This document shows positions 1 to 12,039 of a DNA stretch of 20,053 nucleotides, one piece after another. Origin of the DNA: Frankiales bacterium. GTDB taxonomy: Bacteria; Actinomycetota; Actinomycetes; Mycobacteriales; SCTD01. The stretch spans positions 1-20,053 of the forward strand of contig JAODNQ010000212.1 in the NCBI GenBank assembly GCA_025464695.1, in the 5' to 3' direction. Position 1 is the stretch's first letter, and each line of letters opens with the position of its first letter. The position numbers and the translations under genes are program-made. The notes beneath the pieces were generated by a model. That model had not been told where the DNA came from, ran no database searches, and saw only the letters and a program-made list of their open reading frames with translations.

Positions 1-183
1 GCCGTGGCACGGCTGGCGGCCGAGGCGCGGGCATCGGCGACGGCGCGAGCCGAACAACGGGCGCGGCGGGCGGGCGTCCTCGCGGTCGCCCCGCTCGGCC
101 TGTGCTTCCTCCCCGCTTTCGTGCTGCTGGGCGTCGTGCCCGTGGTCGTGGGCCTGGCGGGGCCGCTGCTGGCGTCGCTGTAG
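1..183 (+). CDS. TadC-like type II secretion system F-family membrane protein, 3' end
   Basis: This is the last 60 codons of a gene that begins before the window. The visible part has an Ala/Arg-rich helix (about residues 1-24) followed by a long hydrophobic stretch containing LGLCFLPAFVLLGVVPVV, which is the typical C-terminal membrane helix of T2SSF/TadC proteins. In Tad systems TadB and TadC form the inner-membrane platform that works with the TadA ATPase to assemble Flp pili. The assignment is supported by the pilin, TadE-like and TadG-like genes downstream. It ends in TAG at 181-183. Only the C-terminus is seen, so TadB versus TadC rests on position; in actinobacterial loci TadC is usually the gene just before the DUF4244 pilin. 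Confidence 0.75.
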   Translation, partial: AVARLAAEARASATARAEQRARRAGVLAVAPLGLCFLPAFVLLGVVPVVVGLAGPLLASL

Positions 184-1198
184 GCCGTCCCTGTTCGGCG
201 GTCCGCGGCCGGCGGTGCTCCTGCCCGCGGCAGAGCGGCGCTCGTGGCTGCCCGGCCTGCGTCGGTCCGCGTACCGGCGACACCCGTCCCCGCTGGCGTT
301 CCAGGTCTGCCGGCTCCGCGAGGCCCGCGTTCCCGCTGGCCGCCCAGGTCCGCGGCTCTACGGCGCCCGTCCCTGCCGCAACATCCCCGCTCGTCCTGCC
401 CGGTCCGGTGTCCCTGTGGCACTCGTCGGGCCCAGCCTGCTGCGCCGGGCAGGCCCGGCTCTGGGCCACGTCTTCCCGTCCAGATGCGGTCCTCCCGAGC
501 TCGACAGCGGGGCCGCGGCGCGCTCGGGCTCGGGTCCACATGGCGACCCCTGCTGGGCCCGTGGCCCTCTTCGGGTCACACCGCGTCGGGGTGGCCGCGT
601 GCGCTGACCACGGTCGCAGGTGGCGGGGGTCGTCCTGGCGCGCGCCTGTCGGGCCGCGCAGCGACCGTCCTCCGCCTCCACCTCCACCTCCACCTTGCCG
701 TCGTCGTCGCCCGCCACGGCCGTGGGCTGTACGACCCTCCTCGTCGGCTCCTGCTTCCTGCTCACTGCGGCCTACGGCCTGAGCGGCCTGCGGCCTGCCG
801 CACGGGCGCCCCCGCCCGCCCGGCCGTGCTGACCCGTGCCCCTCCGCCTGACCCCGGTCGAACCCGCCGCGCGTGCGTGCTTGGCGCTGCCGGCCTGCCA
901 GGCCGCGGGCGTGGCCGAGGCCCCGTCGCGGCGATCCGCCTGCCCGCCCCGTCGGGGGTCGGCAGCCTGCCGTTGTCCCGGTGCGGCTCCGACCGGCCTA
1001 GCGCGTCCGACCTCGCTCCGCCCTGCGCCCGCGGGTCGTGGACCGCCCTTCCCGGCCGCTGTCAAGGCCTCGCGCCGTCGTCCACAGCCGGCTGTGGAGC
1101 ACTCCCGTCCTGGCCCCTCTCCCGGCACCGTCGTCCCTGTCCGGCCAGCAGGTCGGCGCCACCAGACCGGCACGCCGGTCCCGCCAGGAGGTCCTCCC
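184..1198. other. About 1 kb between tadC and the pilin gene with no convincing gene
   Basis: This stretch is GC-rich, and the plus strand is visibly richer in C than in G. Several open frames cross it on both strands, but they lack the strong G/C third-position bias of the real genes nearby, contain low-complexity Arg/Pro/Ala translations, and match no family I recognise. It holds a short CCTCCA microsatellite (675-692) and an 18-bp perfect palindrome at 1081-1098. In related Tad loci the pilin gene usually follows tadC closely, so the gap is unusual. A decayed gene, a long leader, or a C-rich Rho-loading region after tadC are all possible; the sequence does not decide. Confidence 0.5.
1081..1098. 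promoter_or_regulatory. 18-bp perfect palindrome upstream of the pilin gene
   Basis: TCCACAGCCGGCTGTGGA reads the same on both strands and lies about 100 bp before the pilin start codon. This is a typical place and size for a dimeric repressor or activator site on the pilin promoter. It could also form a cruciform or hairpin. No regulator is known. Confidence 0.4.
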
Positions 1199-1308
1199 AT
1201 GCGCGCTCTCTCCCTCGTCCGCACCGCCCCCGTCCGCCTCGCCGTCCGACTGCAGACCGCGGGCTCCGACGACGCCGGCATGACCACCGCGGAGTACGCG
1301 GTCGGGAC
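1199..1308 (+). pseudogene. DUF4244/Flp-type pilin, 5' half (interrupted by the element)
   Basis: The ATG at 1199 has an ideal AGGAGG at 1186-1191, seven bases upstream. The product starts with a basic leader and then DAGMTTAEYAVGT. This is a prepilin processing site (cleavage expected after Gly27) with the conserved Glu at +5 (Glu32), as in Flp pilins and the actinobacterial DUF4244 family. The frame leaves the family sequence at the GGGAC core of attL (1304-1308) and continues out of frame over the integrase gene to a stop at 1552, so the fusion would lack the hydrophobic assembly helix. Its missing 3' half is at 11100-11219. Joining the halves gives a complete 74-aa protein in frame. While the element is integrated this copy should be non-functional. 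Confidence 0.88.
1304..1308 (+). other. attL crossover core
   Basis: GGGAC is shared with attR at 11100-11104. The left flank is pilin coding sequence (TACGCGGTC) and the right flank is element sequence (GGTTGACCGAACG). A very short shared core is normal for large serine integrases, which exchange around a central dinucleotide. The exact dinucleotide cannot be fixed within these five bases. Confidence 0.85.
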
Positions 1309-1324
1309 GGTTGACCGAACGGTC

Positions 1325-1330
1325 TACGCT
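1325..1330 (+). promoter_or_regulatory. Candidate -10 box for the integrase (leaderless)
   Basis: TACGCT fits the TANNNT pattern and ends seven bases before the ATG at 1338, so transcription would start at or next to the start codon. No ribosome binding site precedes that ATG, which agrees with a leaderless message. The -35 region would fall at about 1302-1307, on the crossover core, and shows no clear consensus. Confidence 0.4.
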
Positions 1331-1337
1331 TACGGGC

Positions 1338-2771
1338 ATGACGAAGGCGGCGATCTACACACGGCTCTCTCAGGACCGCACGGGCGAGGCCGTGGTGGTC
1401 GCCCGGCAGGAGCGAGCCTGCCGGGAGCTGGCGGAGCGGCTCGGTTGGGACGTGACCGCCGTCTTCACCGACAACGACACAAGCGCCTATGGCAAAAAGC
1501 CCCGCAGGGAATACCGGGAAATGCTCGAGGACGTGAAAGGCGGGCGCATTGACGCTGTCCTCGCCTATCACTCTGATCGGCTCTACCGGCACCCGGCAGA
1601 CCTCGAGGAGCTGGTCCGGCTCGCCGAGGCCCACTCCCTGCAGATCGCCACCGCACAGTCGGGCGACCTGGACCTGTCGACGAGTGCCGGCCGGATGGTC
1701 GCCCGCATCCTCGGCAGCACCGCGCGCGGCGAGGTCGAGCGGCTCGCCGAGCGGACGAAGGCCGGGAAGAACGACGCCGCCTCCCGCGGCGCGTGGAACG
1801 GCGGGCAGCGGGTCTACGGCTATGAGGTCGTGCCGGTCGCCGAACGTGCGCCCGGAGAGCCCCCGCTGCGCGTCGTCGAGGCCGAGGCAGAGGTTGTCCG
1901 CGACGTTGCTGAGAGGGTGCTGGCGGGGGAGTCGCTGCGCGGGATCGCCCGCACGCTGACCGAGGCCGGCGTGACGACGACGACTGGGAAGACGTGGACC
2001 GGCAGCGCTCTGAGGAAGGTCCTCGTCCGGCCGACGACCGCCGGCCTGCGCGCGACCGGCGGCGAGGTCGTCGGCAAGGGCCAGTGGGAGCCGCTGCTGT
2101 CGGAGGACGTGTGGCGCGGCGTCGTCGCCCTGCTGTCTGACCCGTCGAGGAAGACCACCACGCGGTACACCCGGACCTACCTCGGCTCGGGCATCTACCT
2201 GTGCGGCGTCTGTGGCGGCCCCCTGACCGGCAACACCACCGCGGGCGGAGGCCCCGGCGACCGGCGCGCTGCCTACCGCTGCCGCACCGCTGACAGGGAT
2301 GGGAGCAGCCACGTCGTCCGCGCAGTCGCCACGCTCGACGAGTTCGTGGTGAGCCTCGTGCTCGAGCGCCTGTCCCGCGTCGACGCCGTCGCCGGCATCG
2401 TCCCGCCTCGCCCGGACACCGCACCGCTGCACGTCGAGGCCGGGGCCTTGCGGGAGCGGCTCGACGATGCCGCGAGGGGGTGGGCTGCTGGGGTCCTGTC
2501 GCAGTCGCAGCTCACGGCGGCGACGGCGGAGCTGCGTGCACGGCTCGAGGACGTCGAGGCCCGCATCGGGCAGGCCAACCAGGGGAGCGCCCTCGTCGGC
2601 CTTGCGGGACCGAAGGCGGCGGAGACGTGGGAGACGCTGCTCCTGGACCGGCGTCGCGCTGCCGTCGACCTGCTGATGACCGTCACCGTGCTACCCCGGA
2701 ACCGGACCGGCCGACTGCCCGGTGGGGACTACTGGGACCCGGCTGCCGTGCGTGTCGAGTGGAAGGCGTGA
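1338..2771 (+). CDS. Large serine recombinase (integrase)
   Basis: This 477-aa protein carries out site-specific integration and, with a partner, excision of the element. The N-terminal resolvase domain (about 1-145) begins AAIYTRLSQD with catalytic Ser11. It has the arginine motif YHSDRLYR (Arg81, Arg84) and the helix GRMVARILGSTARGEVERL. A recombinase domain follows (about 155-270), then a zinc-ribbon region with CGVC (Cys289, Cys292) and Cys315, then a coiled-coil-rich C-terminus (about 365-430). Length and order match phage-type large serine integrases. The ATG at 1338 is preferred because it gives the normal start of the resolvase fold; a TTG at 1311 would add nine residues. The gene lies immediately inside attL, as usual. 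A directionality factor is not identifiable but should be one of the small element genes. Confidence 0.95.
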   Translation: MTKAAIYTRLSQDRTGEAVVVARQERACRELAERLGWDVTAVFTDNDTSAYGKKPRREYREMLEDVKGGRIDAVLAYHSDRLYRHPADLEELVRLAEAHSLQIATAQSGDLDLSTSAGRMVARILGSTARGEVERLAERTKAGKNDAASRGAWNGGQRVYGYEVVPVAERAPGEPPLRVVEAEAEVVRDVAERVLAGESLRGIARTLTEAGVTTTTGKTWTGSALRKVLVRPTTAGLRATGGEVVGKGQWEPLLSEDVWRGVVALLSDPSRKTTTRYTRTYLGSGIYLCGVCGGPLTGNTTAGGGPGDRRAAYRCRTADRDGSSHVVRAVATLDEFVVSLVLERLSRVDAVAGIVPPRPDTAPLHVEAGALRERLDDAARGWAAGVLSQSQLTAATAELRARLEDVEARIGQANQGSALVGLAGPKAAETWETLLLDRRRAAVDLLMTVTVLPRNRTGRLPGGDYWDPAAVRVEWKA

Positions 2772-2773
2772 CC

Positions 2774-3385
2774 ATGCCGAAGGACGAGTACCGGGCACCG
2801 CGCGTCATGCAGCCGATGGGCACCGACCCCGGCTGGACCGAGAAGGTCGGGCTCCTCAACGGCAATCCCGACCACAGGGGCAACCCCACGGTGCGCGTGG
2901 TCTGCGAGGGCCGGCACGACAAGGGGACGCACCACAAGGAGACCGTCGTCGCCACCTTCTACGCGCTGCCCTTCGACGCCGCGGGCGGGGAGTGCGGCAA
3001 CTGGATCTGGGACTCGGACGCGTCCGTAGGTGGGGGTAAGCGTCACCACGGCACGCGGATGCGCGGGCAGAAGGCCCGCCGCAAGACCACGGAGGCGGAG
3101 AAGGACGCGGGGTACCGCTGGGATCACATCGAGGTCGACCCGAAGGTCTATGTCGGTATGACCGGGACCGGCAACACCCTGCACCTGTACTGCCCCCGGT
3201 GCCCCCTGGACCTCCACCTCAAGGAGGGCGCACTGCAGGAGTGCCTCGACGAGTTCGTGGCGGCGGAGGGCCGCCTTCAGGGCGACATGGCGGAGCTGCA
3301 GAAGGCCGCAGGTCGGAAGCTGCCGCTCGTCGGGCTGATCGCCCGGCAGACCAAGCCGAAGACACGACGCGACGCGCGCTCGTAG
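2774..3385 (+). CDS. Hypothetical protein with CxxC zinc-knuckle, downstream of the integrase
   Basis: This 203-aa soluble protein is not from a family I recognise. The ATG at 2774 has GGAAGG seven bases upstream (2761-2766) and lies two bases after the integrase stop. A GTG at 2768 would overlap that stop but sits too close to the same ribosome binding site. Visible features are a conserved-looking segment VRVVCEGRHDKGTHHKET near residue 40, a basic central part, and LYCPRC near residue 140, a possible metal-binding CxxC pair that may use the earlier Cys and His residues. The C-terminus is basic. Co-transcription with the integrase suggests a role in recombination or its control, and a recombination directionality factor is one option, but that is inference from position only. 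Confidence 0.8.
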   Translation: MPKDEYRAPRVMQPMGTDPGWTEKVGLLNGNPDHRGNPTVRVVCEGRHDKGTHHKETVVATFYALPFDAAGGECGNWIWDSDASVGGGKRHHGTRMRGQKARRKTTEAEKDAGYRWDHIEVDPKVYVGMTGTGNTLHLYCPRCPLDLHLKEGALQECLDEFVAAEGRLQGDMAELQKAAGRKLPLVGLIARQTKPKTRRDARS

Positions 3386-3415
3386 GTCTGATCTACCGCC
3401 CGTAGTTGCTATGGT
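3382..3415 (+). promoter_or_regulatory. Candidate promoter with overlapping operator for the replication operon
   Basis: A 15-bp imperfect inverted repeat, GTAGGTC-T-GATCTAC (3382-3396, six of seven arm pairs matching), overlaps the stop of the preceding gene. A TATGGT -10-like hexamer lies at 3410-3415. With 17-bp spacing the -35 region would be at 3387-3392, inside the inverted repeat, so a bound regulator could block the promoter. The element's XRE protein is the obvious candidate. The 218-bp gap before the next gene also holds the 10-bp palindrome GTCCCGGGAC at 3535-3544 and no other gene that I can support. Confidence 0.35.
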
Positions 3416-3603
3416 GAGGAAGCACTAGAGCAAGATGCTTCGACGGGCCAAGCACTGGCACTGAGGCGGCGAACGGTGGCCGTCCACCCAGGCTGTCCGA
3501 CCCGGAGTTGTTGAAGACGCTGACCGGATGGGCTGTCCCGGGACCTCGCTCCTACTGGCACGGAAGGTGCCTCTAGGGCTTGCTCCGCCGTGAGGACAAG
3601 CCG

Positions 3604-3819
3604 ATGTCATGGAAGCAGGACCGCGCGAAGGTCGCCGGGCTCTCCCGTAGCCGCGACCCGAATGACCCCGACCTGCAGAACGCCCGCCGCGACCTGCGCG
3701 CGGCGAGGGCCGAGGAGTACATCCGCAAGCTGGTGGACGCGGCACCGCCGCTCAACCCCGACCAGCTCGCCCGCCTCGCGGTCCTGCTCGCTCCGTCCGA
3801 CGCCGGGGCTGCCGCGTGA
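3604..3819 (+). CDS. Small helical protein of actinobacterial integrated elements
   Basis: The 71-aa product has the pattern DPDLQNARRDLRAARAEEYIRK followed by DAAPPLNPDQLARLAVLL. I recognise this arrangement (an Arg-rich amphipathic helix, then a PPL..xQ..RLA..L helix) from many unnamed small proteins of actinobacterial prophages and integrated plasmids, often near the integrase or replication genes; its function is unknown. The ATG at 3604 is chosen because TGAGG lies eight bases upstream; a TTG at 3580 is possible but has no good site. The stop TGA (3817-3819) overlaps the GTG start of the next micro-ORF, so the cassette is probably translated as a coupled unit. Confidence 0.75.
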   Translation: MSWKQDRAKVAGLSRSRDPNDPDLQNARRDLRAARAEEYIRKLVDAAPPLNPDQLARLAVLLAPSDAGAAA

Positions 3820-3932
3820 ACGCGCGAAGGGCGCCCCTGCACGGGACGCCCTCCGTCGACGCCGCCGCCGCCCAGCCGCAGGTCTACGCCGATGGTACGC
3901 AGCCCAACGACACATCGGGTGGCGTCGCGTGA
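3816..3932 (+). CDS. 38-aa micro-ORF coupled to both neighbours
   Basis: A short frame starts at GTG 3816, overlapping the previous stop as GTGA, and ends at TGA 3930-3932, overlapping the primase start as TGATG. The predicted product is 38 aa with a basic N-terminus (NARRAPLHG) and a small-residue tail containing VYADGTQPNDTSGG. There is no recognisable domain. Exact stop/start overlaps on both sides are the signature of translational coupling, and they leave no untranslated gap in the operon. It may encode a real microprotein or serve only to carry ribosomes to the primase start. Confidence 0.5.
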   Translation: MNARRAPLHGTPSVDAAAAQPQVYADGTQPNDTSGGVA

Positions 3933-6688
3933 TGCCCGCTGAGCCGCTCACATGGGTCGAGCGCGTCCGCACGCGGGGCATCAACGGCGTGACTGCGCCG
4001 CCGAAGGCAACCGCTCCTGACCCTGCCGAGATCCGGGCTGCCGAGCTGGCCTGGCACGCAGCCGGCTTCGGCGTCGTGATGACGAAGCAGGACGGCAGCA
4101 AGCGGCCGGACGGCGACTGGAAGCACCTGCAGAGCGTCCGCGCGACCGCCGCCGACATCACCTCGTGGAGCGACCACCGCGGCTTCGGCCTCATCACAGG
4201 GGCGGTGAGCGGCAACGCGGAGATGTTCGAGTTCGAGGGCCGCGCCGTCGAGCAGGGCCTGCACCTGAAGGTGCGCGCCCTCGTCCCCGACGAGCTGTGG
4301 ACCCGCTTCCGCAGGTACCTCGAGGTCACGCCGACCGGGGGCTTCCACATCGTGGTCCGCGTCGAGGGCGACCCGGTGCCCGGCAACCTCAAGCTGGCCC
4401 GCCGCCCCTCGACGGACGAGGAGCTGCAGGCGTTCCGGCTGAAGGAGCACATCAAGGCCGACGCCCTGCCAGCGGACAAGCGCGCCCGCCGCCTCGAGCA
4501 GCTCATCAACCTGACGCCGGAGCAGGTGCCGCAGGTGCTGACCGAGACGCGCGGCGAGGGCGGCTTCGTCGTCGTCGCCCCGTCGGGCGGCGCGGTCCAC
4601 CCGAGCGGCAAGCCGTGGACGTTGAAGGACAGCTCGAAGCCCGGCGTCGTCGGCACCATCACGAGCGAGGAGCGGGACCTCATCGTTAAGGCGTTCGCGT
4701 CCGTCGACTGCCTGCCGAAGCCGAAGCAGGCCGGCCCGAAGCGCGAGAAGGGCGAGCGGGCCACTCCGCGCAACACCGATCCGACCGACGCCTTCGCGGA
4801 CAGCATCCGACCGGGCGACGACTACGCCGCCCGTACCCCCTGGCCGGACATCGTCGAGCCGCACGGCTGGACGTGGGCCTACCGGTACCAGGGCGCGGAC
4901 CACTGGACCCGGCCCGGCAAAGTCGTGCGCGACGGCACCTCCGCAACGACCGGCTACGGGGACGCGGACCTGCTGTACGTGTTCACGTCGTCCGTCGCGG
5001 AGTTCGAGCCGGAGACGACCTACACGAAGTTCGGGGCCTACGCCGCCCTCAACCACGGCGGGGACTTCAAGGCCGCGACGAGGCAGCTCGCGGCCGAGGG
5101 CTACGGCTCCCCGTCGAAGCCGACGACGCCGACCGCTGCGAGCAAGCTCGTGGCCGCCGAGGAGAAGGCCCCGGAGGCGGAGGACGGCGGGTGGGAGCCG
5201 CCCATCCCGCTCGACACCGCGCCCGTGCCGCCCTTCCCCGTCGAGGCCCTACCGCCAGTCCTCGCCGACTGGACGGCGGGCACCGCGACGGCGACGCAGA
5301 CGCCGCCCGACCTCGCCGGCTTCCTGGCCCTTGACGCGGTCGCCACCGCCGCAGCAGGCAAGTACCGGGTCAAGGTCAAGGAGGGTTGGTCGGAGCCGCT
5401 CAACCTCTACACGCTTGTGAGCCTGCCGCCGGGCTCCCGCAAGAGCGCCGTGTTCAGCGCGGCGACCCGCCCGCTGCAGGAGGCGGAGCGACTGCTGATC
5501 GAGCAGCACGCCCCGACGGTCCGGCAGGCGCAGCAGCAGCAGCGCATCCTCGAGCGCGCACGGGAGAAGGCGGAGCGGGACGCTGCCGCGCAGGTCGAGG
5601 ACCGCAGCAAGCTCGTGGACGCCGTGGCTGCAGGGGACAGGCTCGCGCAGCTCGTCGTGCCGCCGATGCCCCGGCTGCTCGCCGACGACGTCACGCCCGA
5701 GGCCCTCGTCGGCCTGCTCGCCGACCACACCCGGCTCGGCCTGCTGTCCGAGGAGGGCGGCATCTTCGAGACGCTCGCCGGCCGGTACAGCGGCGGGGTC
5801 GCCAACATCGACGCAGTCCTCAAGGCCCACGACGGCGGCACGATCCTCGTGGACCGCAAGGGCTCAGCGCCGAGGCAGGTGCGCGGCGCGGCCCTGGTCC
5901 TTGGCCTCGCGGTGCAGCCCGCGGTGCTGGCCGCCATGTCGAGGGTCCCGGAGTTCACGGGACGCGGCCTCGTCGCGCGCTTCGTCTATGCGCTGCCGCC
6001 GACGCACGGGCTGATCGGTCGCCGTGACACGAACGCTCCGCCCGTGGACGTGGCGGTAGCCGAGCGGTACGACGCGCGAGTCCAGGTCCTCGCCCTCGCC
6101 CCGCTCCCGACGACGCCGGTCCTGCTCACCCTCAGCCCCGGTGCGGTCCGGCTGTTCCAGGAGTTCCAGGACGGCCTCGAGCCGCGCCGCAACGCCGACA
6201 CAGGCGACCTCGCCGACCTCGTCGAGTGGTCGGGGAAGCTCGAGGGCCTGACCGCCCGCCTTGCCGGCCTGCTGCACGTCGGCCGCCACGGCGAGGGCTG
6301 CCCGGCCGTGATCGCCGAGCAGGACATGGCCGGCGCGATCCGGCTCGCCGAGTACGCCATCCCGCACGCGCGCGCCGCCCTCGACCTCATGTCGGGGCGC
6401 AACATCAACGGTCCGGCGTTGTCTCTGCTGCGCGTGATCCGCGACAAGGGCCTGGACGTGTTCGCGGTCCGGGAGCTGCACAAGCTGGTCGAGGGGCAGG
6501 TGGTCTTCCACAAGGTCGACGGCGTCCAGCTCGCCCTCGCCGTACTCCTCGAGGCCGGGTACATCCGGCCCGTCCCGGACCCGGCGTCCGACGAGCCGAA
6601 GCGGAAGGGCAGGCCGCCGTCGCCGCGCTACACGGTCAACCCGTTGTGGAGCGCCGGTCCCGTCGCGTCACGCAGGGCGGGCTCGTGA
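3932..6688 (+). CDS. Primase-polymerase-like / DUF3987 replication protein
   Basis: This 918-aa multidomain protein is the element's likely replication initiator, acting on DNA in the cytoplasm. Residues about 30-225 look like a bifunctional primase/polymerase (archaeo-eukaryotic primase) domain: GFGLITGAVSGNAEMFEFEG, with acidic pair Glu100/Glu102 where DxD is usual, then TPTGGFHIVVRV with the GxH motif (His139), then APSGGAVHPSG. Residues about 295-392 form the linker typical of these primases (HWTRPGK, SATTGYGDADLLYVF, YTKFGAYAALNHGGDF). Residues about 430-880 are DUF3987/YfjI-like, with a P-loop-like SLPPGSRKSAVF near 497-508 and a long helical insertion near 515-560. The ATG at 3932 is favoured by TGATG overlap with the micro-ORF; upstream sequence in this frame overlaps other genes and looks non-coding. 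Confidence 0.88.
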   Translation: MPAEPLTWVERVRTRGINGVTAPPKATAPDPAEIRAAELAWHAAGFGVVMTKQDGSKRPDGDWKHLQSVRATAADITSWSDHRGFGLITGAVSGNAEMFEFEGRAVEQGLHLKVRALVPDELWTRFRRYLEVTPTGGFHIVVRVEGDPVPGNLKLARRPSTDEELQAFRLKEHIKADALPADKRARRLEQLINLTPEQVPQVLTETRGEGGFVVVAPSGGAVHPSGKPWTLKDSSKPGVVGTITSEERDLIVKAFASVDCLPKPKQAGPKREKGERATPRNTDPTDAFADSIRPGDDYAARTPWPDIVEPHGWTWAYRYQGADHWTRPGKVVRDGTSATTGYGDADLLYVFTSSVAEFEPETTYTKFGAYAALNHGGDFKAATRQLAAEGYGSPSKPTTPTAASKLVAAEEKAPEAEDGGWEPPIPLDTAPVPPFPVEALPPVLADWTAGTATATQTPPDLAGFLALDAVATAAAGKYRVKVKEGWSEPLNLYTLVSLPPGSRKSAVFSAATRPLQEAERLLIEQHAPTVRQAQQQQRILERAREKAERDAAAQVEDRSKLVDAVAAGDRLAQLVVPPMPRLLADDVTPEALVGLLADHTRLGLLSEEGGIFETLAGRYSGGVANIDAVLKAHDGGTILVDRKGSAPRQVRGAALVLGLAVQPAVLAAMSRVPEFTGRGLVARFVYALPPTHGLIGRRDTNAPPVDVAVAERYDARVQVLALAPLPTTPVLLTLSPGAVRLFQEFQDGLEPRRNADTGDLADLVEWSGKLEGLTARLAGLLHVGRHGEGCPAVIAEQDMAGAIRLAEYAIPHARAALDLMSGRNINGPALSLLRVIRDKGLDVFAVRELHKLVEGQVVFHKVDGVQLALAVLLEAGYIRPVPDPASDEPKRKGRPPSPRYTVNPLWSAGPVASRRAGS

Positions 6689-6861
6689 GCGCCCGCCCGC
6701 AGCGCCGGCAGGACCTCGACGATGCACACGCCGCATCGCTGATCCTGCTCGCCGTCCTCGAGCGGGTGAAGGCCGACGAGGTCGACGCCCGGCCGGCGTT
6801 CGTCGCCTGCCTGCAGGGTGCCGTCCGCGCCCTGCAGGCCGTCAGCGGGAGGCAGGGGTGA
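6685..6861 (+). CDS. Small helical hypothetical protein
   Basis: The GTG at 6685 overlaps the primase stop (GTGA), giving 58 aa. The sequence is predicted all-helical, with HAASLILLAVLERVKADEVD and PAFVACLQGAVRALQAV, and ends before a coupled downstream gene. I do not recognise a family. Position within the replication cassette suggests an accessory factor for the primase or for copy control, which is inference only. Confidence 0.65.
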   Translation: MSARPQRRQDLDDAHAASLILLAVLERVKADEVDARPAFVACLQGAVRALQAVSGRQG

Positions 6862-7106
6862 GCGCCGACGGGAGCCCCGGCTGCGGGCTGTGTGGAGCCG
6901 GGGCCGCGTGCCCCGGAGCCGCGGTCGTCGAGACGCGCGCTGTCAGGCTGTCCCCGACGACCGACGGAGAGTGCCGGGTGGAGGTCGCGCCCATCAAAGG
7001 CGGCCTGTCTGCTGTCTACGTCCGCAGGGCCTACCGGCCGACGCCGACGTCCTCGGAGCAGCCCCTCCTGCAGCCCTGGAAGTACGACCCGGACTGCCCC
7101 TTCTGA
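6858..7106 (+). CDS. Small cysteine-containing hypothetical protein
   Basis: The GTG at 6858 overlaps the previous stop (GTGA) and is preceded by GGGAGG, giving an 82-aa protein. The N-terminus has GCGLCGAGAACPG, a CxxC plus a third cysteine that could bind metal, followed by a likely beta-rich part (ETRAVRLSPT, ECRVEVAPI) and a C-terminus ending DPDCPF. The family is not recognised. It is the last gene of the coupled replication cassette, and a strong hairpin follows at 7117-7156. Confidence 0.65.
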   Translation: MSADGSPGCGLCGAGAACPGAAVVETRAVRLSPTTDGECRVEVAPIKGGLSAVYVRRAYRPTPTSSEQPLLQPWKYDPDCPF

Positions 7107-7116
7107 CCGCTAACAA

Positions 7117-7156
7117 GACGCCCCGTCCTCGCCCTTGCGGCAGGGGCGGGGGCGTC
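7117..7156 (+). terminator. Hairpin ending the replication operon
   Basis: GACGCCCC at 7117-7124 pairs with GGGGCGTC at 7149-7156, and CGCCC/GGGCG inside extends the stem. It begins ten bases after the stop of the 82-aa gene. No U-run follows, which is common in high-GC actinobacteria. Confidence 0.65.
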
Positions 7157-7411
7157 GTGGAGTGGCGCGAGCCGGGAGGCTGGCCGCCGTCGTCGCCTCC
7201 TGCGCGCGCCTCGACGGCCCACACGGCGACAGTCGGCGGACAGTTCCCGTCCAGTTCGCGGAGTTGCTAGGCGGACCTCGCCCGCGACGTCCCTTGCGGG
7301 GCAGCGCAGAAGGCCCGGCCCACATGATGTTGTTACGGAAGTGGTGGATGCCCGCAGCGATCCGCGGGCCGTGGGCACCTGAGACTCCCCTAGGTACTCC
7401 CTAGGTACTCC
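7157..7411. other. Intergenic region between convergent operons
   Basis: No gene with convincing coding character is present. It lies between the plus-strand replication operon and the minus-strand xre operon. The only clear structure is the tandem CCTAGG-containing repeat at its right end. Confidence 0.5.
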
Positions 7412-7416
7412 CTAGG
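7384..7416. repeat. Three tandem CTCCCTAGG repeats
   Basis: Three tandem copies of an 11-12-bp unit (ACTCCCTAGGT, the first with one extra C) run to the end of the xre gene. The TAG stop of that gene is the complement of CTA in the last copy. Each copy contains the palindrome CCTAGG. They may be protein-binding sites or a simple slippage array. Confidence 0.6.
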
Positions 7417-7903
7417 CGACGTCGCCCCGCAGGTCGCCTCGTGCGTTGCGCTGCAGGGCCGCGAGGGTGGCCCGAGCCCGCTGCCGGCGCTCCTCCGGGA
7501 GCTTGCGTCGCCGGGCCTGCCGGGCGAGGCGGTCGGTCCGCATCTCGTCCCAGAACACGCGGCGTGCACGGGCCACCCGGCGCTGCGCGACCTTGTCACC
7601 GTGCTCCGACTCGGGCGCGAGGGCGGGGCCGGCTGCGTCCACGAGCAGGTCGACGAGGTCGTCGTGGTCGACGTCGAGGAACAGCGCGAGGAAGTACGCG
7701 ATCCGGCCGAGGGTCGACGCGCGGGTCCGCCGCTGGCCGGCCTCGAGCCGCTGCAGGAACCGGACTGACAGGGCGGCCCCCTGCGCGAGCTGCTCCTGCG
7801 TCACCACGGCGAGGACTCGTGCGTGCCGCAGGGTCGCGCCGAGGGCCTGCAGGTGGGGCAGCTCCTCGGGCTGCAACGGCCGACGAGTGCCCGACGCGGT
7901 CAT
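7412..7903 (-). CDS. XRE-family transcriptional regulator
   Basis: This 163-aa cytoplasmic DNA-binding protein has an XRE/Cro-type helix-turn-helix at about residues 20-75: LGATLRHARVLAVVTQEQLA (helices 1-2), then ALSVRFLQRLEAGQRRT (recognition helix and turn), then STLGRIAYFLALFL. The C-terminal half is Arg-rich and helical. The start ATG (complement of 7901-7903) overlaps the stop of the upstream gene as ATGA, so the two are coupled. As the only clear repressor-type gene, set opposite to the replication operon, it is the probable switch that keeps the element quiet. Its operator is not proven; the inverted repeat at 3382-3396 is one candidate. Confidence 0.85.
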   Translation of the reverse strand: MTASGTRRPLQPEELPHLQALGATLRHARVLAVVTQEQLAQGAALSVRFLQRLEAGQRRTRASTLGRIAYFLALFLDVDHDDLVDLLVDAAGPALAPESEHGDKVAQRRVARARRVFWDEMRTDRLARQARRRKLPEERRQRARATLAALQRNARGDLRGDVA

Positions 7904-8097
7904 GGGGCTGTGCGCCCCGCAGCGGCGCTTTCCGCCCTGACCCTGGTCGCTGCCTCAAGGCCGACGACGACGCCCTCGAGGCGTCGCAGGAAGCGGCTCC
8001 CTGCGGGTCCCTCGGCGTCGAGCGTGCCGGCCTCGACGTCGGCGAGGACTCGACGCACGATCCGTGCTGCCTCGGCCTGCTCCCGCTGCGTCGCCAT
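7900..8097 (-). CDS. Small helical protein coupled to the XRE regulator
   Basis: This 65-aa product starts MATQREQAEAARIVRRVLAD and is predicted helical and soluble, with no recognised domain. Its stop overlaps the xre start by four bases (ATGA), so it is the first gene of a two-gene operon. TACTCT lies six bases before its ATG and could be a -10 box for a leaderless message. The arrangement of small protein then HTH protein could be a regulator with its modulator or an antitoxin-like pair; no toxin features are visible. Confidence 0.6.
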   Translation of the reverse strand: MATQREQAEAARIVRRVLADVEAGTLDAEGPAGSRFLRRLEGVVVGLEAATRVRAESAAAGRTAP

Positions 8098-8148
8098 GCT
8101 TCGAGAGTAGGGCTTGTGCGCGATGTTGGGCAGCGGTCGGGCCGGCGA

Positions 8149-8310
8149 CTAGCGCAGCAGGTTCTCGAGGTCGCCTACCCACGACCCGAACAAGCCGAGC
8201 GCGATTGCAAGGAGCACCAGCGGCAGGCTGCCACCTGCAATGCCCGCGAAGCCGAGGAAGGCAGCGAGGACGACGAGCAGGCCGCCGACGAGACCGCGGA
8301 AGGTGGTCAC
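8149..8310 (-). CDS. Small two-helix membrane protein
   Basis: This 53-aa product from a GTG at 8310 has two hydrophobic segments (GLVGGLLVVLAAFLGFAGIA and LPLVLLAIALGLFGSWV) and a short acidic tail. A longer frame to 8454 exists, but the added N-terminal part looks like random Arg/Gly-rich translation. No clear ribosome binding site precedes the GTG, so the start is uncertain. Function is unknown. Small membrane proteins of this type are common accessory genes in mobile elements, where some act in exclusion or as holin-like factors. Confidence 0.5.
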   Translation of the reverse strand: MTTFRGLVGGLLVVLAAFLGFAGIAGGSLPLVLLAIALGLFGSWVGDLENLLR

Positions 8311-8584
8311 GCGTCGACGCTTGCACACCTGCACGCCCTCGCTGTCCCCGTTCGCTCGACGGTGCCCTTTCGGGCCTCCGAGCGGGCACAGCGCTGACAA
8401 CGGTTGTCCACAGCCCAGCGCGAGCCGCTCCCTCCGGAGGCCCCTGCGCGGCATCGTGGCCGCCGCTGGTCCTGCCGCCCGGAGTCACGTCGCCCGGTCC
8501 AGGACGGCCCCGCCCACCTTCGAGGGGCAGGGTCCTGAGTCGCGGTCGCCGGAGTGCAGGCGGCAGGGCCAGCCGCTGAGCCGT
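8311..8584. other. Gap between the small membrane gene and the second recombinase gene
   Basis: No gene is supported here. The region holds the inverted repeat and DnaA-box-like motif described at 8396-8412. It lies downstream of the minus-strand recombinase gene and upstream of the membrane protein gene, so it should contain the promoter of the latter. Confidence 0.5.
8396..8412. promoter_or_regulatory. GACAAC-G-GTTGTC inverted repeat overlapping a TTGTCCACA motif
   Basis: GACAAC and GTTGTC are perfect inverted arms around a single G (8396-8408). The right arm runs into TTGTCCACA (8404-8412), identical to the usual actinobacterial DnaA-box consensus. One copy is not enough to call an origin. 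It may equally be an operator for the adjacent minus-strand gene. Confidence 0.4.
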
Positions 8585-9301
8585 CTACGAGGCGACGCGA
8601 CGCCGACGCTTGCTCGGCTCGGGGAGGTCGGCCTTCTTCTGCTTCGTCGGCGGGCGCCGGTAGCCGGCAGCGGTCTGCACGGACGACACGCGCCACTCGG
8701 CGCCACCCCGCGCCGTCGGGACGCCGTCGGCGTTCAAGCCGTCCGCGATGCTCTGCCACGTCGCCCCGCTGCTGCGCTCACGGGCGATCCGGGCCGCGAC
8801 CTCGGGCGCCTTCGTGGCGACGCCAACCAGGCCGCCCCACTGTTTGCCCTGCGCCCGGCTCGCGGCAGCAGCCTCGCGGGTCCGCTCGCCGATGCGGACC
8901 CGCTCCCACTCGGCTACCGCGCCCATCACCTGCGCGACGAGCTTCCCGGTCGACGTCGTCATGTCCAGGCCGAGGTCGAGGGCGACGAGGGCGACACCAT
9001 GCCGGCCTGCCCAGTCCAGGAGGTCGCACAGATGAGGGAGCGAGCGGGTCAGGCGGTCGAGCTTCGACACCACCAGGACGTCGGCGCTGCCGGCGACGAG
9101 GCCGGACAGGGCGGCCTGCAGCTCGGGCCTCGCCATGTCCTTGCCCGACGCCCCCTCCTCGCGGTGGACACCGACGACGTCCCACCCGCGGCGTTCCGCC
9201 TCGGCGCGCAGCGTGGACTCCTGTGCGTCGAGCCCGAGGCCGGACGCCGCCTGCTCGGCGGTGGAGACGCGGACGTACAGGAGGGCGCGGGTCGTGGTCA
9301 C
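8585..9301 (-). CDS. Serine recombinase, resolvase/invertase type
   Basis: This 238-aa DNA recombinase has a resolvase domain at about residues 5-140: LLYVRVSTAEQ with catalytic Ser13, the arginine motif VSKLDRLTRS, and the E-helix TSTGKLVAQVMGAVAEWER. A short recombinase/HTH-like tail follows (SSGATWQSIADGLNADGVPT), then a very basic C-terminus (KRRRR). It is about half the length of the integrase and lacks the zinc ribbon and coiled coil, so it is a resolvase/invertase-like enzyme. The start is GTG (complement of 9299-9301), and the promoter lies in a large inverted repeat just upstream. It may resolve multimers of the excised circle, invert DNA, or be a remnant of another element. Confidence 0.9.
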   Translation of the reverse strand: MTTTRALLYVRVSTAEQAASGLGLDAQESTLRAEAERRGWDVVGVHREEGASGKDMARPELQAALSGLVAGSADVLVVSKLDRLTRSLPHLCDLLDWAGRHGVALVALDLGLDMTTSTGKLVAQVMGAVAEWERVRIGERTREAAAASRAQGKQWGGLVGVATKAPEVAARIARERSSGATWQSIADGLNADGVPTARGGAEWRVSSVQTAAGYRRPPTKQKKADLPEPSKRRRRVAS

Positions 9302-9305
9302 AGGC

Positions 9306-9342
9306 TCTGTCTACCGCAACGCGTGCGTTGCGGCAAGACAGA
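9306..9342 (-). promoter_or_regulatory. 37-bp inverted repeat containing the recombinase promoter
   Basis: The core CCGCAACGC-GT-GCGTTGCGG (9314-9333) is a perfect 9-bp inverted repeat. Outer arms TCTGTCT (9306-9312) and AGACAGA (9336-9342) also match, separated by one and two unpaired bases. Read on the minus strand it contains TTGCCG, exactly 17 bp, then TAGACA, a good -35/-10 pair, with the GTG start six bases after the -10 (a leaderless message). The inverted repeat forms the spacer, so a bound dimer would block transcription. It could be the recombinase's own crossover or operator site. Confidence 0.6.
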
Positions 9343-9422
9343 AGGTCCCGTCAAGTTTCCACGAACAGCAACTTCTGTGCCAACCTGCCCCGGTCCAGTC
9401 CCCTCCACCCCAGGAGCGCCCC

Positions 9423-9656
9423 GTGCTCGCCGTCCTCCTCGCCGTCCTCGCCGTCCTCGCCGTCCTCTTCGCCTACCTACTGGCCTACGAACAGGTGGCG
9501 GGCCTCGGCCTTCCCCTCGACGAGGACGACCCGGTCTACGACTGCATCCCTAACAGGCCGGACCACGAGTGGCACCACGCGCGCCTCGAGGCTCGGACCC
9601 GTGCGAGTGAGCGCGAGCGGAAGCGACTGCTCCGCCGGTACAGCGACGCCGGCTAG
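9423..9656 (+). CDS. Small single-pass membrane protein
   Basis: The 77-aa product starts at GTG 9423 with AGGAG seven bases upstream. Residues 1-22 are a hydrophobic helix made of LAV repeats (encoded by tandem CTCGCCGTC units) ending in AYLLAYEQ. A charged cytoplasmic or external part follows, with LPLDEDDPVYD and a basic C-terminal helix (SERERKRLLRRY). No family is recognised. It is divergent from the second recombinase gene, and the two share the inverted-repeat region between them. Confidence 0.65.
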   Translation: MLAVLLAVLAVLAVLFAYLLAYEQVAGLGLPLDEDDPVYDCIPNRPDHEWHHARLEARTRASERERKRLLRRYSDAG

Positions 9657-9670
9657 GTCGTCAGGCGCAG

Positions 9671-9684
9671 GGGGGGCGCCCCCC
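9671..9684. terminator. G/C palindrome after the small membrane gene
   Basis: GGGGGGCGCCCCCC is a perfect 14-bp palindrome 15 bases after the stop of the 77-aa gene. It may act as a terminator; having no loop, it would need to open at its centre to form a hairpin. Confidence 0.4.
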
Positions 9685-9823
9685 GTTACGCGCGGCCGGG
9701 CGGCCTTGCTGCTGCTGCACCTACGCCTGCCCGGCGCCCACGATGCAGGCCCGCCAGAACCGGTGGCCCGTCGAACGGGAGTTGAGAGCGCAGAAGTCGG
9801 CACGCTCAGCAGCTCGGCCGTGC

Positions 9824-9851
9824 ACGCTCGTCGTGCTGCCTCGACGAGCGT
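9824..9851. repeat. Perfect 10-bp inverted repeat (hairpin)
   Basis: ACGCTCGTCG (9824-9833) pairs fully with CGACGAGCGT (9842-9851) around the 8-base loop TGCTGCCT. It does not follow a gene end closely, so it is more likely a binding or structural site, or part of a small RNA, than a simple terminator. Confidence 0.55.
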
Positions 9852-10028
9852 TGCGCGCCCACCCCAGACGTAGGTGGCGAGGCCCCCTCTCGCCCCCCTG
9901 TTGGCCTCGACAGCAGGTGAGGGAGGGACGTCGCCCTCGAGCAGCGCGGCTCGGCACGAAGCAGCACAGGAGGGGGCCCGCCTTCGAGCAGCGCGCACCC
10001 CTTGCAGCAGGCAGCAGCTCGGCTCAAG

Positions 10029-10058
10029 TTGACGTTTGACCCCGGCTTTACCTAGAGG
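10029..10058 (+). promoter_or_regulatory. Candidate promoter for the small HTH gene
   Basis: TTGACG (10029-10034), an 18-bp spacer and TAGAGG (10053-10058) form a reasonable housekeeping-sigma promoter. The 10-bp palindrome CTAGTACTAG (10074-10083) lies just downstream of the expected start site and may be an operator. Confidence 0.45.
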
Positions 10059-10139
10059 CCCCCCGTCATGGGTCTAGTACTAGCTCGCCCCGACGCTCAG
10101 CAACCAGCGTTGCGCCGCCGACCCCCGTACCTTCGACAC

Positions 10140-10403
10140 ATGGTCAACACAAGCGAGGGCGACCACGACGACGACGAGGACTGGTCCTTCGGGGAGCTGC
10201 TGGTCCTGCTCGACGAGGACGCCGAGGTCGCAGAGGTCGGGCCGGTACTGGTCCGCGCCGTCGCAGACCTCGAACTGCTGCACACGCTGGCAGTCCGCCG
10301 CGCCCGTCAGCGCCGCGAGTCCTGGCCGAGCATCGGTGCGGCCCTCGGCGTGACCCGGCAGGCGGCGCAGAAGAAGTACGGGTACCTCGACGAAATGCTT
10401 TGA
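10140..10403 (+). CDS. Small helix-turn-helix protein
   Basis: The 87-aa product has an acidic N-terminus (EGDHDDDEDW), a helical middle with LLVLLDEDAEVAEVGPVLV, and a C-terminal helix-turn-helix, SWPSIGAALGVTRQAAQKKY. I know this arrangement from small actinobacterial DNA-binding proteins (an Arg-rich helix, then SW..IG.ALG.SRQAA). Two starts are possible: ATG 10140, or ATG 10068, which adds 24 Arg/Pro-rich residues and includes the CTAGTACTAG palindrome. Neither has a strong ribosome binding site. The shorter form is preferred because the extra N-terminus looks non-coding. It could be a regulator of excision or a directionality factor; this is inference. Confidence 0.7.
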   Translation: MVNTSEGDHDDDEDWSFGELLVLLDEDAEVAEVGPVLVRAVADLELLHTLAVRRARQRRESWPSIGAALGVTRQAAQKKYGYLDEML

Positions 10404-10426
10404 CCCGGTTCAGTCGAGAAGCCCAC

Positions 10427-10615
10427 TCAGTCGCGCATCATCATGTTGTAACCAAGCGCGGTCAGCCCGGCAAAGGCGCAGGTGAGGCCGAGCCAAAGCA
10501 GGTTCGTGGTCGAGTTCTCGCTGTTGTTGGACAGCCCGCCGAGTACCAGACCGACGGTAGTCAGGCCGCAGAACCAGCAAAGCATGGTGCCGATGTTGCC
10601 GCGCAGGGCCCTCAT
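10427..10615 (-). CDS. Small two-helix membrane protein
   Basis: The 62-aa product from the ATG at 10615 has two hydrophobic segments (MLCWFCGLTTVGLVLGGL and LLWLGLTCAFAGLTALGY) joined by a polar NSENSTT loop, ending NMMMRD. Codon use and base composition are less GC-rich than the chromosome around the element, which fits foreign origin. The frame runs further upstream to 10744, but that part is Pro/Ser-rich and unlikely. No family is recognised. It converges with the HTH gene. Confidence 0.55.
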   Translation of the reverse strand: MRALRGNIGTMLCWFCGLTTVGLVLGGLSNNSENSTTNLLWLGLTCAFAGLTALGYNMMMRD

Positions 10616-10676
10616 GGGAGGCGAGCGTCCTCGTAGGAGCTGCCCAGGGCAAGCCCGAGCGCGGGGGGCGGGGGGC

Positions 10677-10862
10677 ATGATGAGCGGGAGGGTCGAGCTG
10701 CCGGCCGAGGAGGTCGACGCCGACATCTGCGACCACGAGGGCAACGGCGTGTGGGTGGTCCTGCGCCGCGTCGTCTTCGTGGTCGGCCGACCGCGGGACG
10801 TCGTCGTGCGAAGGCTGCGAGCTGCTGATGTCCTCGAGGTTCGTCAGTCCTCGAGTGCCTGA
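10677..10862 (+). CDS. Small hypothetical protein
   Basis: The 61-aa product starts at ATG 10677 (or ATG 10680) after a G-rich stretch that could serve as a weak ribosome binding site. It has an acidic N-terminal part (LPAEEVDADICDHEGNG) followed by a beta-like VWVVLRRVVFVVGRP and a basic segment. No family is recognised. It is the last possible gene before attR and is divergent from the small membrane gene. Confidence 0.4.
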   Translation: MMSGRVELPAEEVDADICDHEGNGVWVVLRRVVFVVGRPRDVVVRRLRAADVLEVRQSSSA

Positions 10863-11099
10863 CCGGGTGGCGCTCGTCGTCGAGGCCCTCCTGAGAGGGC
10901 TTGTGTCCTTTCTGTCGATGCCCTGTAGGCGTGTGGGGTGGTGAGGGGGGTCAGTTGTTTGAGACTTTCTCCTTCTTCTTCTTCAACTTTAGGCTGGGTG
11001 ACCGCTCGTCGGCTCAGGTACTAGGGACGCGCCGACACAATCGACAGAACTAGCGCGCGCCCTGGGTGCAGCTAGGCGTGGGCTGGTCCCACCACCGTG
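10863..11099. other. Gene-free end of the element next to attR
   Basis: No gene is supported. The region contains the least GC-rich sequence of the window, with a pure 20-base pyrimidine run at 10965-10984 and a spaced inverted pair GTCGGC (11008-11013) / GCCGAC (11031-11036). Together with the first bases inside attL it would make up attP and the region upstream of the integrase in the excised circle. Confidence 0.5.
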
Positions 11100-11104
11100 G
11101 GGAC
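11100..11104 (+). other. attR crossover core
   Basis: GGGAC is shared with attL (1304-1308). The left flank (CCACCACCGTG) is element sequence, and the right flank (TGTCGCGGCGTG) resumes the pilin coding frame. Confidence 0.85.
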
Positions 11105-11219
11105 TGTCGCGGCGTGCGGGTTCGGCGGTGTCCTGGTCGAGGTCATCAAGGACCCGTCGGTGCAGAACGCCATCAAGGGCCTGTTCCTCAAGGCGCTCAG
11201 CTTCGCGGGGCTCGGCTGA
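11100..11219 (+). pseudogene. DUF4244/Flp-type pilin, 3' half
   Basis: From the GGGAC core the frame reads GTVAACGFGGVLVEVIKD and ends KALSFAGLG at TGA 11217-11219. This is the hydrophobic helix and C-terminus expected after the GMTTAEYAV segment seen at 1199-1308. The two halves share the Gly-Thr codons at the core, and joining them leaves the frame intact (75 codons including stop, 74 aa). A GTG at 11097 gives an in-frame start in this half but has no ribosome binding site and would lack the prepilin leader. The lack of stops or frameshifts in either half suggests the insertion is recent or that excision still restores the gene. Confidence 0.88.
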
Positions 11220-11284: not shown

Positions 11285-11668
11285 GTGAGGTGCAGACCCG
11301 CTCGGTGCAGGAGCCGCGACGCCGGCATGGTGACGGCGGAGACCGCCGTCGTCCTGCCTGTGCTGGTGCTCGTGCTGGCGTTCGCTGTGTGGGCGCTGGC
11401 CTGCGTCGGGGCGCAGCTGCGCTGCGTCGACGCGGCCCGCGAGGCCGCCCGGCTCGCCGCTCGCGGTGAGCCCGCCTCGGAGGTCCAGGCGGCAGCCCGT
11501 CGCGCGGCTCCTCACGGCGCCGTCGTCGAGGTCGCTGTGCGGGGCGACCACGTCGTGGTGCTCGTGCGGCTGGACGTCGAGCCCTTCGGACCTGCCCTGG
11601 CCGGGCTCACCGGCGTCCAGGTGCAGGGCCGGTCGACCGCGCTGCAGGAGCCCGGGGCCGCGCCGTGA
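11285..11668 (+). CDS. TadE-like pseudopilin
   Basis: This 127-aa protein starts at GTG 11285 with GAGGAGG six bases upstream (11272-11278). It has a short basic leader, then DAGMVTAETAVVLPVLVLVL: a prepilin-type site after Gly14 with Glu19 at +5 and a long hydrophobic helix, as in TadE minor pilins. The segment RCVDAAREAARLAARGE after the helix is also characteristic of TadE proteins. The periplasm-side part is mostly beta-like. It would be processed by the prepilin peptidase and sit in or near the pilus. It is coupled to the next gene by a GTGA overlap. Confidence 0.88.
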   Translation: MRCRPARCRSRDAGMVTAETAVVLPVLVLVLAFAVWALACVGAQLRCVDAAREAARLAARGEPASEVQAAARRAAPHGAVVEVAVRGDHVVVLVRLDVEPFGPALAGLTGVQVQGRSTALQEPGAAP

Positions 11669-12039
11669 GGCGCCGGCTGCAGGGCGACCGGGGCTCGGGC
11701 ACGGTGCTCGCGCTGGCCCTGTGCATGGTCCTCGCGGGGTTCGCAGCGGTCCTGGTCGGCGTCGGGCTGCTCGTGGTGACCCGACACCGGGCCGACGCTG
11801 CTGCGGACCTCGCTGCCCTCGCGGCGGCGAGCCGGTCGGCGGACGGCAGCGCGCGTGCCTGCAGCGCAGCCGCTGCCACCGCTGCGGCCGACGGTGCACG
11901 GCTCGTGCTCTGCCGGTTCGCGGGAGCGGACGTGGTCGTCCGCGTCGAGGTGCTCCCGCCCGGTCGCCTCGCTGCTCTGGGGCCCGCGACCGGCACGGCT
12001 CGGGCCGGGCCGGGAGCCGGGCTCGTGACGACGGGCTGA
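11665..12039 (+). CDS. TadG/Rv3654c-like Flp pilus-assembly protein
   Basis: The 124-aa product starts at GTG 11665, overlapping the tadE-like stop (GTGA). It begins with basic residues then GDRGSGTVLALALCMVLAGF, a TadE/TadG-type N-terminal membrane helix, followed by TRHRADAAADLAALAAA, the conserved segment of this group, and two cysteines (in RACSAA and LVLCRF) that may form a disulfide. It matches the family known as the helicase/secretion-neighbourhood TadE-like protein (Rv3654c type). The nearby DECH-box helicase at 15081-17393 fits that neighbourhood. It is the last gene of the Tad cluster here. Confidence 0.85.
   Translation: MRRRLQGDRGSGTVLALALCMVLAGFAAVLVGVGLLVVTRHRADAAADLAALAAASRSADGSARACSAAAATAAADGARLVLCRFAGADVVVRVEVLPPGRLAALGPATGTARAGPGAGLVTTG

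What the first reader, a model, noticed from the sequence alone, without database searches (positions are those of the whole stretch)
1199..11219. A 9.8-kb element splits a Tad/Flp pilin gene exactly, and excision would restore it
The 5' half (ATG 1199, prepilin site GMTTAE) and 3' half (ending 11219) share GGGAC at the junctions. Joining them at the core gives VGTVAACGF in one frame, 74 aa, with no stop or frameshift. The insertion falls just after the prepilin signal, so the integrated form loses the whole hydrophobic pilin helix. A serine integrase starts 30 bp inside attL. I know of no description of a serine integrase using a DUF4244 pilin gene as attB.
Basis: partly seen in the sequence, partly recalled or inferred. 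Interest (0 to 1): 0.88.

Follow-up and report, generated by a model that had tools for sequence, protein, structure and literature searches.

The report
Mobile element splits a pilin gene
A 9.8-kb mobile DNA element sits exactly inside the gene for the main surface-pilus protein of a soil-type actinobacterium, and other mobile elements have hit the same gene and related DNA-uptake genes again and again, which suggests they may gain from switching off DNA uptake.

Summary
A 9,796-bp element sits between two GGGAC copies inside a DUF4244 (Flp/Tad major pilin) gene; the joined host flanks give a 74-aa protein matching PF14029 from end to end, and intact relatives (88%, 84%) carry the same junction residues. 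A 477-aa large serine integrase starts 29 bp inside attL.

The case is not isolated. In 397 genomes of one actinobacterial order, 378 have a DUF4244 match and at least 10 of these are split (8 with both halves found), against 0 complementary splits among 383 genomes matching a control gene (yraN). Three to four serine-integrase lineages and tyrosine recombinases are involved. Of 80 cousin-integrase loci, 18 lie in comM, 12 in tadA, 7 in an eccC-like gene; 43 are unplaced.

Best reading: an integrative element that removes the major pilin while integrated, one of many actinobacterial elements sitting in DNA-uptake genes. That serine recombinases favour competence genes is published (Durrant 2022), as is TP901-1 in the comGC pilin gene; Flp pilin and tadA as targets appear to be a new variant. 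Excision and transformation were not tested.

The parts
1199..1308 (+). 5' part of the DUF4244 (Flp/Tad major pilin) gene, with processing site GMTTAEY; ends in core GGGAC (attL)
   Evidence: intact relatives P0121, P0122
1304..1308 (.). attL core GGGAC
1338..2771 (+). large serine integrase, 477 aa: Resolvase, Recombinase and zinc-ribbon domains
   Evidence: 42 of the 120 listed homologues (659 found) are at 52-80% identity near full length, none with an organism name
2774..3385 (+). 203-aa protein of unknown family
3604..3819 (+). 71-aa protein; relatives in 13 cousin-integrase loci, within about 1.3 kb of the integrase in 10 of them; candidate directionality factor (inference only)
3932..6688 (+). 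918-aa replication protein: Prim-Pol N-terminal plus DUF3987 domain
6858..7106 (+). 82-aa ORF, unknown (GTG start)
7412..7903 (-). 163-aa helix-turn-helix regulator
7900..8097 (-). 65-aa ORF, unknown
8585..9301 (-). second, short serine recombinase (238 aa, catalytic domain plus a stub of the Recombinase domain)
10143..10403 (+). 86-aa helix-turn-helix protein (PHROG 686)
10677..10862 (+). 61-aa ORF, unknown
11100..11104 (.). attR core GGGAC
11105..11219 (+). 3' part of the DUF4244 pilin gene (attR side)
11285..11668 (+). host TadE-like minor pilin gene
11665..12039 (+). host Tad (TadE/G-like) gene
1..183 (+). end of a T2SSF (TadC-like) gene, weak match below the curated cut-off
   Evidence: E 0.0085

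Best explanation
A small integrative element carrying a large serine integrase and a Prim-Pol/DUF3987 replication protein inserted by one attP x attB crossover in GGGAC within the flp (DUF4244) pilin gene. Shown from sequence: the exact split, the in-frame join, the intact gene in relatives, the integrase type. Inferred: while integrated the cell makes no major pilin, so no Flp/Tad pilus; excision, which would need a directionality factor that I did not identify, restores the gene. The site is one case of a recurrent choice: actinobacterial serine-integrase elements insert in conserved codons of Flp-pilus genes (pilin, tadA) and comM. My preferred cause, inferred and not shown, is that disabling natural transformation protects the element from removal by recombination with incoming empty-site DNA, as proposed for prophages in comYC, comK and comM.
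For: Split, join and Pfam match; intact relatives; P0122 and the 94% helicase relative P0242 both have a longest contig of 676,697, so probably one genome. Other splits of the same gene: Longimycelium, G366 and nine more. Control yraN: 0 complementary splits among 383 genomes with a match, 19 rechecked. Trees: the pilin target needs 4 changes (4 forced by well-supported branches, 3). Cousin targets comM 18, tadA 12, eccC-like 7 of 80. flp and other tad genes absolutely required for transformation in Micrococcus luteus (PMC4322843, passages); mobile elements disrupt comYC, comFA, comK, comM (PMC4774983, passages and section 11); serine recombinase targets enriched in competence genes (PMC10083194, passages).
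Against: No read or PCR evidence of excision; no directionality factor identified. att-site dyad symmetry not significant. 43 of 80 cousin loci have no identified target, and 7 of 80 abut an eccC-like ATPase gene, not a competence gene. In both trees rows of unknown target count as a group of their own, which can inflate the number of changes, and the G620 integrase is a long branch of unsure place. Transformation is unproven in the window's host, whose genome is not held, so a second flp gene cannot be excluded. The close metagenomic-type integrases (P0002-P0043) could not be placed in a genome context.
Confidence: 0.8

Rival explanations
1. Neutral target choice: integrases settle on highly conserved coding DNA in dispensable genes (processing-site codons, Walker A codons, a comM motif); loss of the pilus is a tolerated side effect with no benefit to the element.
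For: Seven of the 12 tadA breaks are at Walker A codons, as are the two eccC-like breaks that I read (L010, L033); eccC is not a transformation gene; 43 of 80 targets are unidentified.
Against: The pilin site and the common comM site are not Walker A. Different integrase lineages meet on the same genes, while yraN, next to comM and about as widespread, shows no complementary split. Published enrichment in competence genes.
Confidence: 0.3
2. Receptor removal: the element abolishes Flp pili to keep pilus-dependent phages out of its host (superinfection exclusion).
For: Both the pilin and its motor gene tadA are hit; Flp pili are phage receptors in Caulobacter (recalled, no call).
Against: Does not explain comM, the commonest placed target (18 of 80), which has no surface role. 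No actinobacterial Flp-pilus phage was examined here.
Confidence: 0.08
3. Regulated switch: the element excises on cue so that the host makes pili only at certain times, as described for comK prophages (recalled).
For: The exact split would restore the gene; prophage PhiBM6001.3 excises from comGC in about 3% of cells (PMC10383233, passages).
Against: No excision evidence here. In the comGC case restoration did not bring back competence. In G633 only a 239-aa truncated integrase is left beside the split pilin.
Confidence: 0.06
4. Assembly artefact or chance arrangement rather than integration.
For: The core is only 5 bp and its dyad is weak; the window's own genome is not held.
Against: In-frame full-length protein, identical junction residues in relatives, integrase beside attL, and equivalents in other genomes.
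Confidence: 0.02

Closest known systems
Lactococcal phage TP901-1 in comGC
   Same: Resolvase-type (serine) integrase, attB inside a small competence-pilin gene, gene disrupted on integration (PMC6882331 and PMC7693887, passages; the serine class and the pilin role of ComGC are partly recalled)
   Different: Full phage in Firmicutes, ComG competence pilus rather than Flp/Tad; no virion gene was recognised in the window element
Pneumococcal prophages in comGC/comYC (e.g. PhiBM6001.3)
   Same: Insertion at the 5' end of the competence-pilin gene; excision restores it (PMC10383233, passages; PMC4774983, passages and section 11)
   Different: Different pilus family and phylum; integrase type not stated in the passages seen
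Large serine recombinases targeting Mg-chelatase (comM) and competence genes, Durrant et al. 2022
   Same: Same enzyme class; competence genes enriched among targets; Mg-chelatase homologues hit by 12.4% of predicted site-specific integrases (PMC10083194, passages)
   Different: Flp pilin and tadA are not named in the passages seen ('pilus' occurs 0 times in the main text); its supplements were not seen
Actinobacterial integrative elements with Prim-Pol replication proteins (AICE type; features recalled, PMC3218068 seen only as listing and abstract start)
   Same: Small size, integrase plus Prim-Pol replication protein
   Different: No FtsK/TraB-type transfer gene was matched among the ten element proteins scanned

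Membership tests
Large serine integrase | N-terminal Resolvase domain PF00239 | tested here: met
   E 1.7e-27, full profile
Large serine integrase | Recombinase domain PF07508 and zinc ribbon PF13408 | tested here: met
   E 1.5e-14 and 5.7e-7
Large serine integrase | Short shared core and att site next to the integrase gene | tested here: met
   GGGAC core, integrase ATG 29 bp away
Large serine integrase | Imperfect inverted repeats in attB and attP | tested here: inconclusive
   best dyads no better than shuffles
Large serine integrase | Recombines attP with attB | not testable with these tools
   needs an assay
Flp/Tad major pilin (DUF4244) | Match to PF14029 over its length | tested here: met
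   positions 2-54 of 54, for the joined protein
Flp/Tad major pilin (DUF4244) | G/XXXXEY processing site and 50-80 aa (definition in PMC4322843, passages) | tested here: met
   G-MTTAEY, 74 aa
Flp/Tad major pilin (DUF4244) | Lies in a tad cluster | tested here: met
   TadE and Tad downstream over cut-off; T2SSF upstream weak, below cut-off
AICE / ICE | Conjugal transfer gene (FtsK/TraB or relaxase) | tested here: not met
   none among the ten element proteins scanned; a few smaller ORFs not scanned
Prophage or capsid-bearing satellite | Capsid, portal or terminase genes | tested here: not met
   none among the ten element proteins scanned; a few smaller ORFs not scanned
Competence-gene-disrupting mobile element | Insertion in a gene needed for transformation of that host | not testable with these tools
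   flp and tad needed in M. luteus (PMC4322843, passages); not tested for this host

The most novel reading that the evidence does not exclude
Actinobacterial mobile elements, through several unrelated integrases, have converged on the Flp/Tad pilus (pilin and motor) and comM because these are the DNA-uptake genes of the phylum. If so, Flp-pilus-dependent natural transformation, documented in Micrococcus, is widespread across Actinobacteria, and the map of integration hotspots is a fingerprint of it.
Probability: 0.4. Interest if true: 0.82.

Novelty: new variant of a known kind. Interest (0 to 1): 0.62.

Why it matters
The Flp pilin gene turns out to be a recurrent integration hotspot in Actinobacteria, so some pilus-negative natural isolates may carry reversible mobile-element insertions rather than decayed loci. 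The shared target list (flp, tadA, comM) gives a sequence-based hint that Flp-pilus transformation is common in a phylum where it is documented in few members. The junctions also give candidate attB/attP pairs for new integrases.

Tried and rejected
Rejected: tRNA or RNA-gene target (no tRNA; no Rfam match at gathering scores). Prophage: no virion genes among the ten proteins scanned. Defence cargo: one weak HTH match in PADLOC. Long terminal direct repeats: none seen among the 20 largest families listed. Viral-contig scan with the integrase alone found no relative; with the clade alignment, 16 loci at 25-48%. Viral-contig scan for pilin DNA gave 3 contigs whose frames do not read as pilins. 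Viral scan with the 542-aa integrase gave 2 distant hits. G403 first looked like an element carrying its own pilin 3' end, but TadE-region DNA is duplicated too, so it was not counted. G460 and G619 matches do not read as split pilins. G321 shows a 3' part only, with no serine recombinase found on the 2.8 kb of contig beyond it, and was not counted. In L012 dprA lies beside the hit; the break is in comM.

Limits of the counts. Pilin survey: I rechecked 30 of 397 genomes: 24 with weak or double matches and 6 of the 19 without a match; G593 and G696, about as weak, were not rechecked. Control: 19 of 397, among them 9 of the 14 without a match. Splits may be missed in both. G366 came from the phylum sample and was made the centre of the order sample because it was split; without it the count is 9 of 377. 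Several halves scored below the threshold (5' part of G404 E 0.91, of G633 0.005; 3' part of G620 0.06, of G330 0.01) and were accepted on reading. L007/L008 and L016/L030 are identical integrase rows. L041 was left out of the tree for low coverage, and rows shorter than 230 aa were left out. L064 and L026 were added to one search's counts. The 80 cousin loci are the best of 108 found with two peptide patterns. In G444 and G527 only serine recombinases were searched for, apart from one Pfam scan at a G527 contig end. A 1.6-kb gap of the G647 element was not read.
Full report
Observation. The window holds a DUF4244 gene cut in two by 9,796 bp. The 5' part (1199-1308) and 3' part (to 11219) share GGGAC; joined there they read 74 aa in frame and match PF14029 from position 2 to 54 of 54 (E 7.3e-21). 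The core alone proves little: seven shared words of 5 bp or more occur in the stretches compared and the dyad symmetry of the rebuilt sites is not significant. The proof is the protein: 1,942 homologues were found (120 listed), and the best two, P0121 (88%) and P0122 (84%), both on very long contigs, are intact and carry the same residues across the junction. P0122 and the nearest helicase relative of this window (P0242, 94%) have longest contigs of identical length, probably one genome. Where hits bear names these are mostly Frankiales or Mycobacteriales MAGs; the window's own genome is not held.

Anatomy. The 477-aa integrase (1338-2771) has the three domains of large serine recombinases. 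Then follow a 203-aa unknown, a 71-aa protein with relatives in 13 cousin-integrase loci, a 918-aa Prim-Pol/DUF3987 protein, an HTH regulator, a second short serine recombinase and a small HTH protein. No capsid, terminase or transfer gene was matched among the ten proteins scanned, so I call it a small integrative element and file it under neither prophage nor AICE. PADLOC gave one weak HTH match.

The integrase's kin. Of 659 homologues found (120 listed), rows P0002-P0043 (42) lie at 52-80% identity; none bears an organism name, and I take them for environmental contigs. The next full-length relatives are at 47%. Named genomes gave 108 relatives, of which the best 80 loci (32-47%) were kept. 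Matches in phage and plasmid records were below 60% identity throughout.

The same gene is hit elsewhere. In Longimycelium tulufanense another serine recombinase (549 aa) abuts the pilin 5' part, and the 3' part lies on another contig beside a mirror-image attP arm. A PF14029 survey of 396 genomes of the phylum (174 with a match) and 397 of one order (378 with a match) was followed by a recheck of 30 order genomes and by reading the sequence. Both halves were found in G366, G404, G444, G527, G620, G633, G647 and G330; in G461 and G601 the 3' part alone lies beside an integrase. That is at least 10 of 378, or 9 of 377 without the centre G366. In G404, G527 and G330 the halves lie on different contigs, and in G633 their order is rotated. 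The breaks cluster at three places: the E-Y-A codons of the processing site, the V-G-T-V-A codons (the window's site), and the V-V-T-G codons downstream. Recombinases beside the breaks are serine type in G366, G620, G404, G461, G601, G633 (truncated) and Longimycelium, and tyrosine type in G647 and G330; no serine recombinase was found for G444 and G527, where tyrosine types were not searched for, and a G527 contig end has an IS-type DDE domain.

Control and tree. yraN (PF02021) in the same 397 genomes matched in 383. Nineteen rechecked genomes gave no complementary split; G549 and G648 have lone partial matches, and G718, G541 and G779 have a partial copy besides a full one. In the trees the pilin-target label needs 4 changes, 4 of them forced by well-supported branches and 3. 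Rows of unknown target were counted as a separate group, which can inflate such numbers, and the G620 integrase sits on a long, unsure branch.

Related genes are hit too. Cousins of the window integrase break tadA in 12 of 80 loci: 11 plus L026. Seven of these lie at the Walker A codons (L003, L009, L015, L025, L034, L060, L074), with both halves in hand for L015, L025 and L060. Eighteen of 80 lie in comM: 17 plus L064. In 11 of 11 yraN-flanked loci the translation shows the comM start broken at the same place, just after an F/Y-D-L/V motif. Seven of 80 abut an FtsK-family ATPase gene that I call eccC-like from recall; 43 of 80 remain unplaced. The labels change often on the tree (at least 7 forced changes each for comM and tadA, with the caveat above). 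One genome, Prescottella defluvii, has both comM (L029) and tadA (L060) hit; Longimycelium has both tadA and the pilin hit.

How it most likely works. Shown: exact insertion, integrase type, intact relatives, recurrence. Inferred: loss of the major pilin while integrated, and restoration on excision. Why these genes? Micrococcus luteus needs flp and other tad genes for transformation (PMC4322843, passages). Croucher 2016 argues that elements disrupt comYC, comK, comFA and comM to avoid removal by transformation (PMC4774983, passages and section 11); the word Actinobacteria does not occur in that text, nor do Actino-, Flp or Micrococcus in a 2025 paper on the same conflict (PMC12637031, passages). 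Durrant 2022 reports competence-gene enrichment among serine-recombinase targets, with Mg-chelatase homologues hit by 12.4% of site-specific integrases (PMC10083194, passages). The pattern here fits and extends that to the Flp pilus. Against it stand the eccC-like hits, the Walker A preference and the unplaced majority, so a neutral conserved-site reading stays open at about 0.3.

Novelty. Within the searched library DUF4244 occurs in 3 papers; by their titles and abstract starts none concerns integration. The listings of searches on pilin, Tad or comM attB sites showed nothing on the Flp pilin as target. TP901-1 in comGC is a direct precedent for such an integrase in a pilin gene. I therefore rate it a new variant of a known kind.

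Noticed in passing
window 8585-9301: A second serine recombinase of only 238 aa (catalytic domain plus a stub of the Recombinase domain), closer to recombinases in L002, L013 and L050 (45-53%) than to the element's own integrase (29%).
   Followed up: partly
L003 7300-7620 and L101 1500-1700: The Longimycelium pilin element has attP arms that form a 24-bp palindrome (12 of 12 inner pairs) centred in the TAC codon of the processing site; the same cluster also has tadA broken by a second integrase.
   Followed up: partly
L146 and L147 (G633): Pilin halves lie in rotated order about 29 kb apart, with a truncated integrase between the 5' part and a tadA gene, as if the region had been rearranged after integration.
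   Followed up: no
L148 (G403): Full pilin plus TadE region, then about 13 kb of other genes (phage-like by eye), then a second copy of the pilin 3' part and TadE region: a duplication around an element.
   Followed up: partly
L050 8113-10001 (Arthrobacter sp. ISL-65): A tadA-like ATPase fragment lies between two divergent serine recombinases, as if hit twice.
   Followed up: no
L010, L011, L016, L018, L024, L030, L033: Cousin integrases abut eccC-like FtsK-family ATPase genes; L010 and L033 read as broken at Walker A codons.
   Followed up: partly
L133 14549-15400 (G366): The 9.8-kb pilin element of G366 carries an ORF that looks like an HK97-type capsid protein (by eye, no family search), so it may be a satellite or small prophage.
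   Followed up: no
window 184-1198: About 1 kb without a clear gene between the TadC-like end and the pilin start (an ORF at 102-782 has no Pfam match), wider than I would expect in a tad cluster.
   Followed up: no
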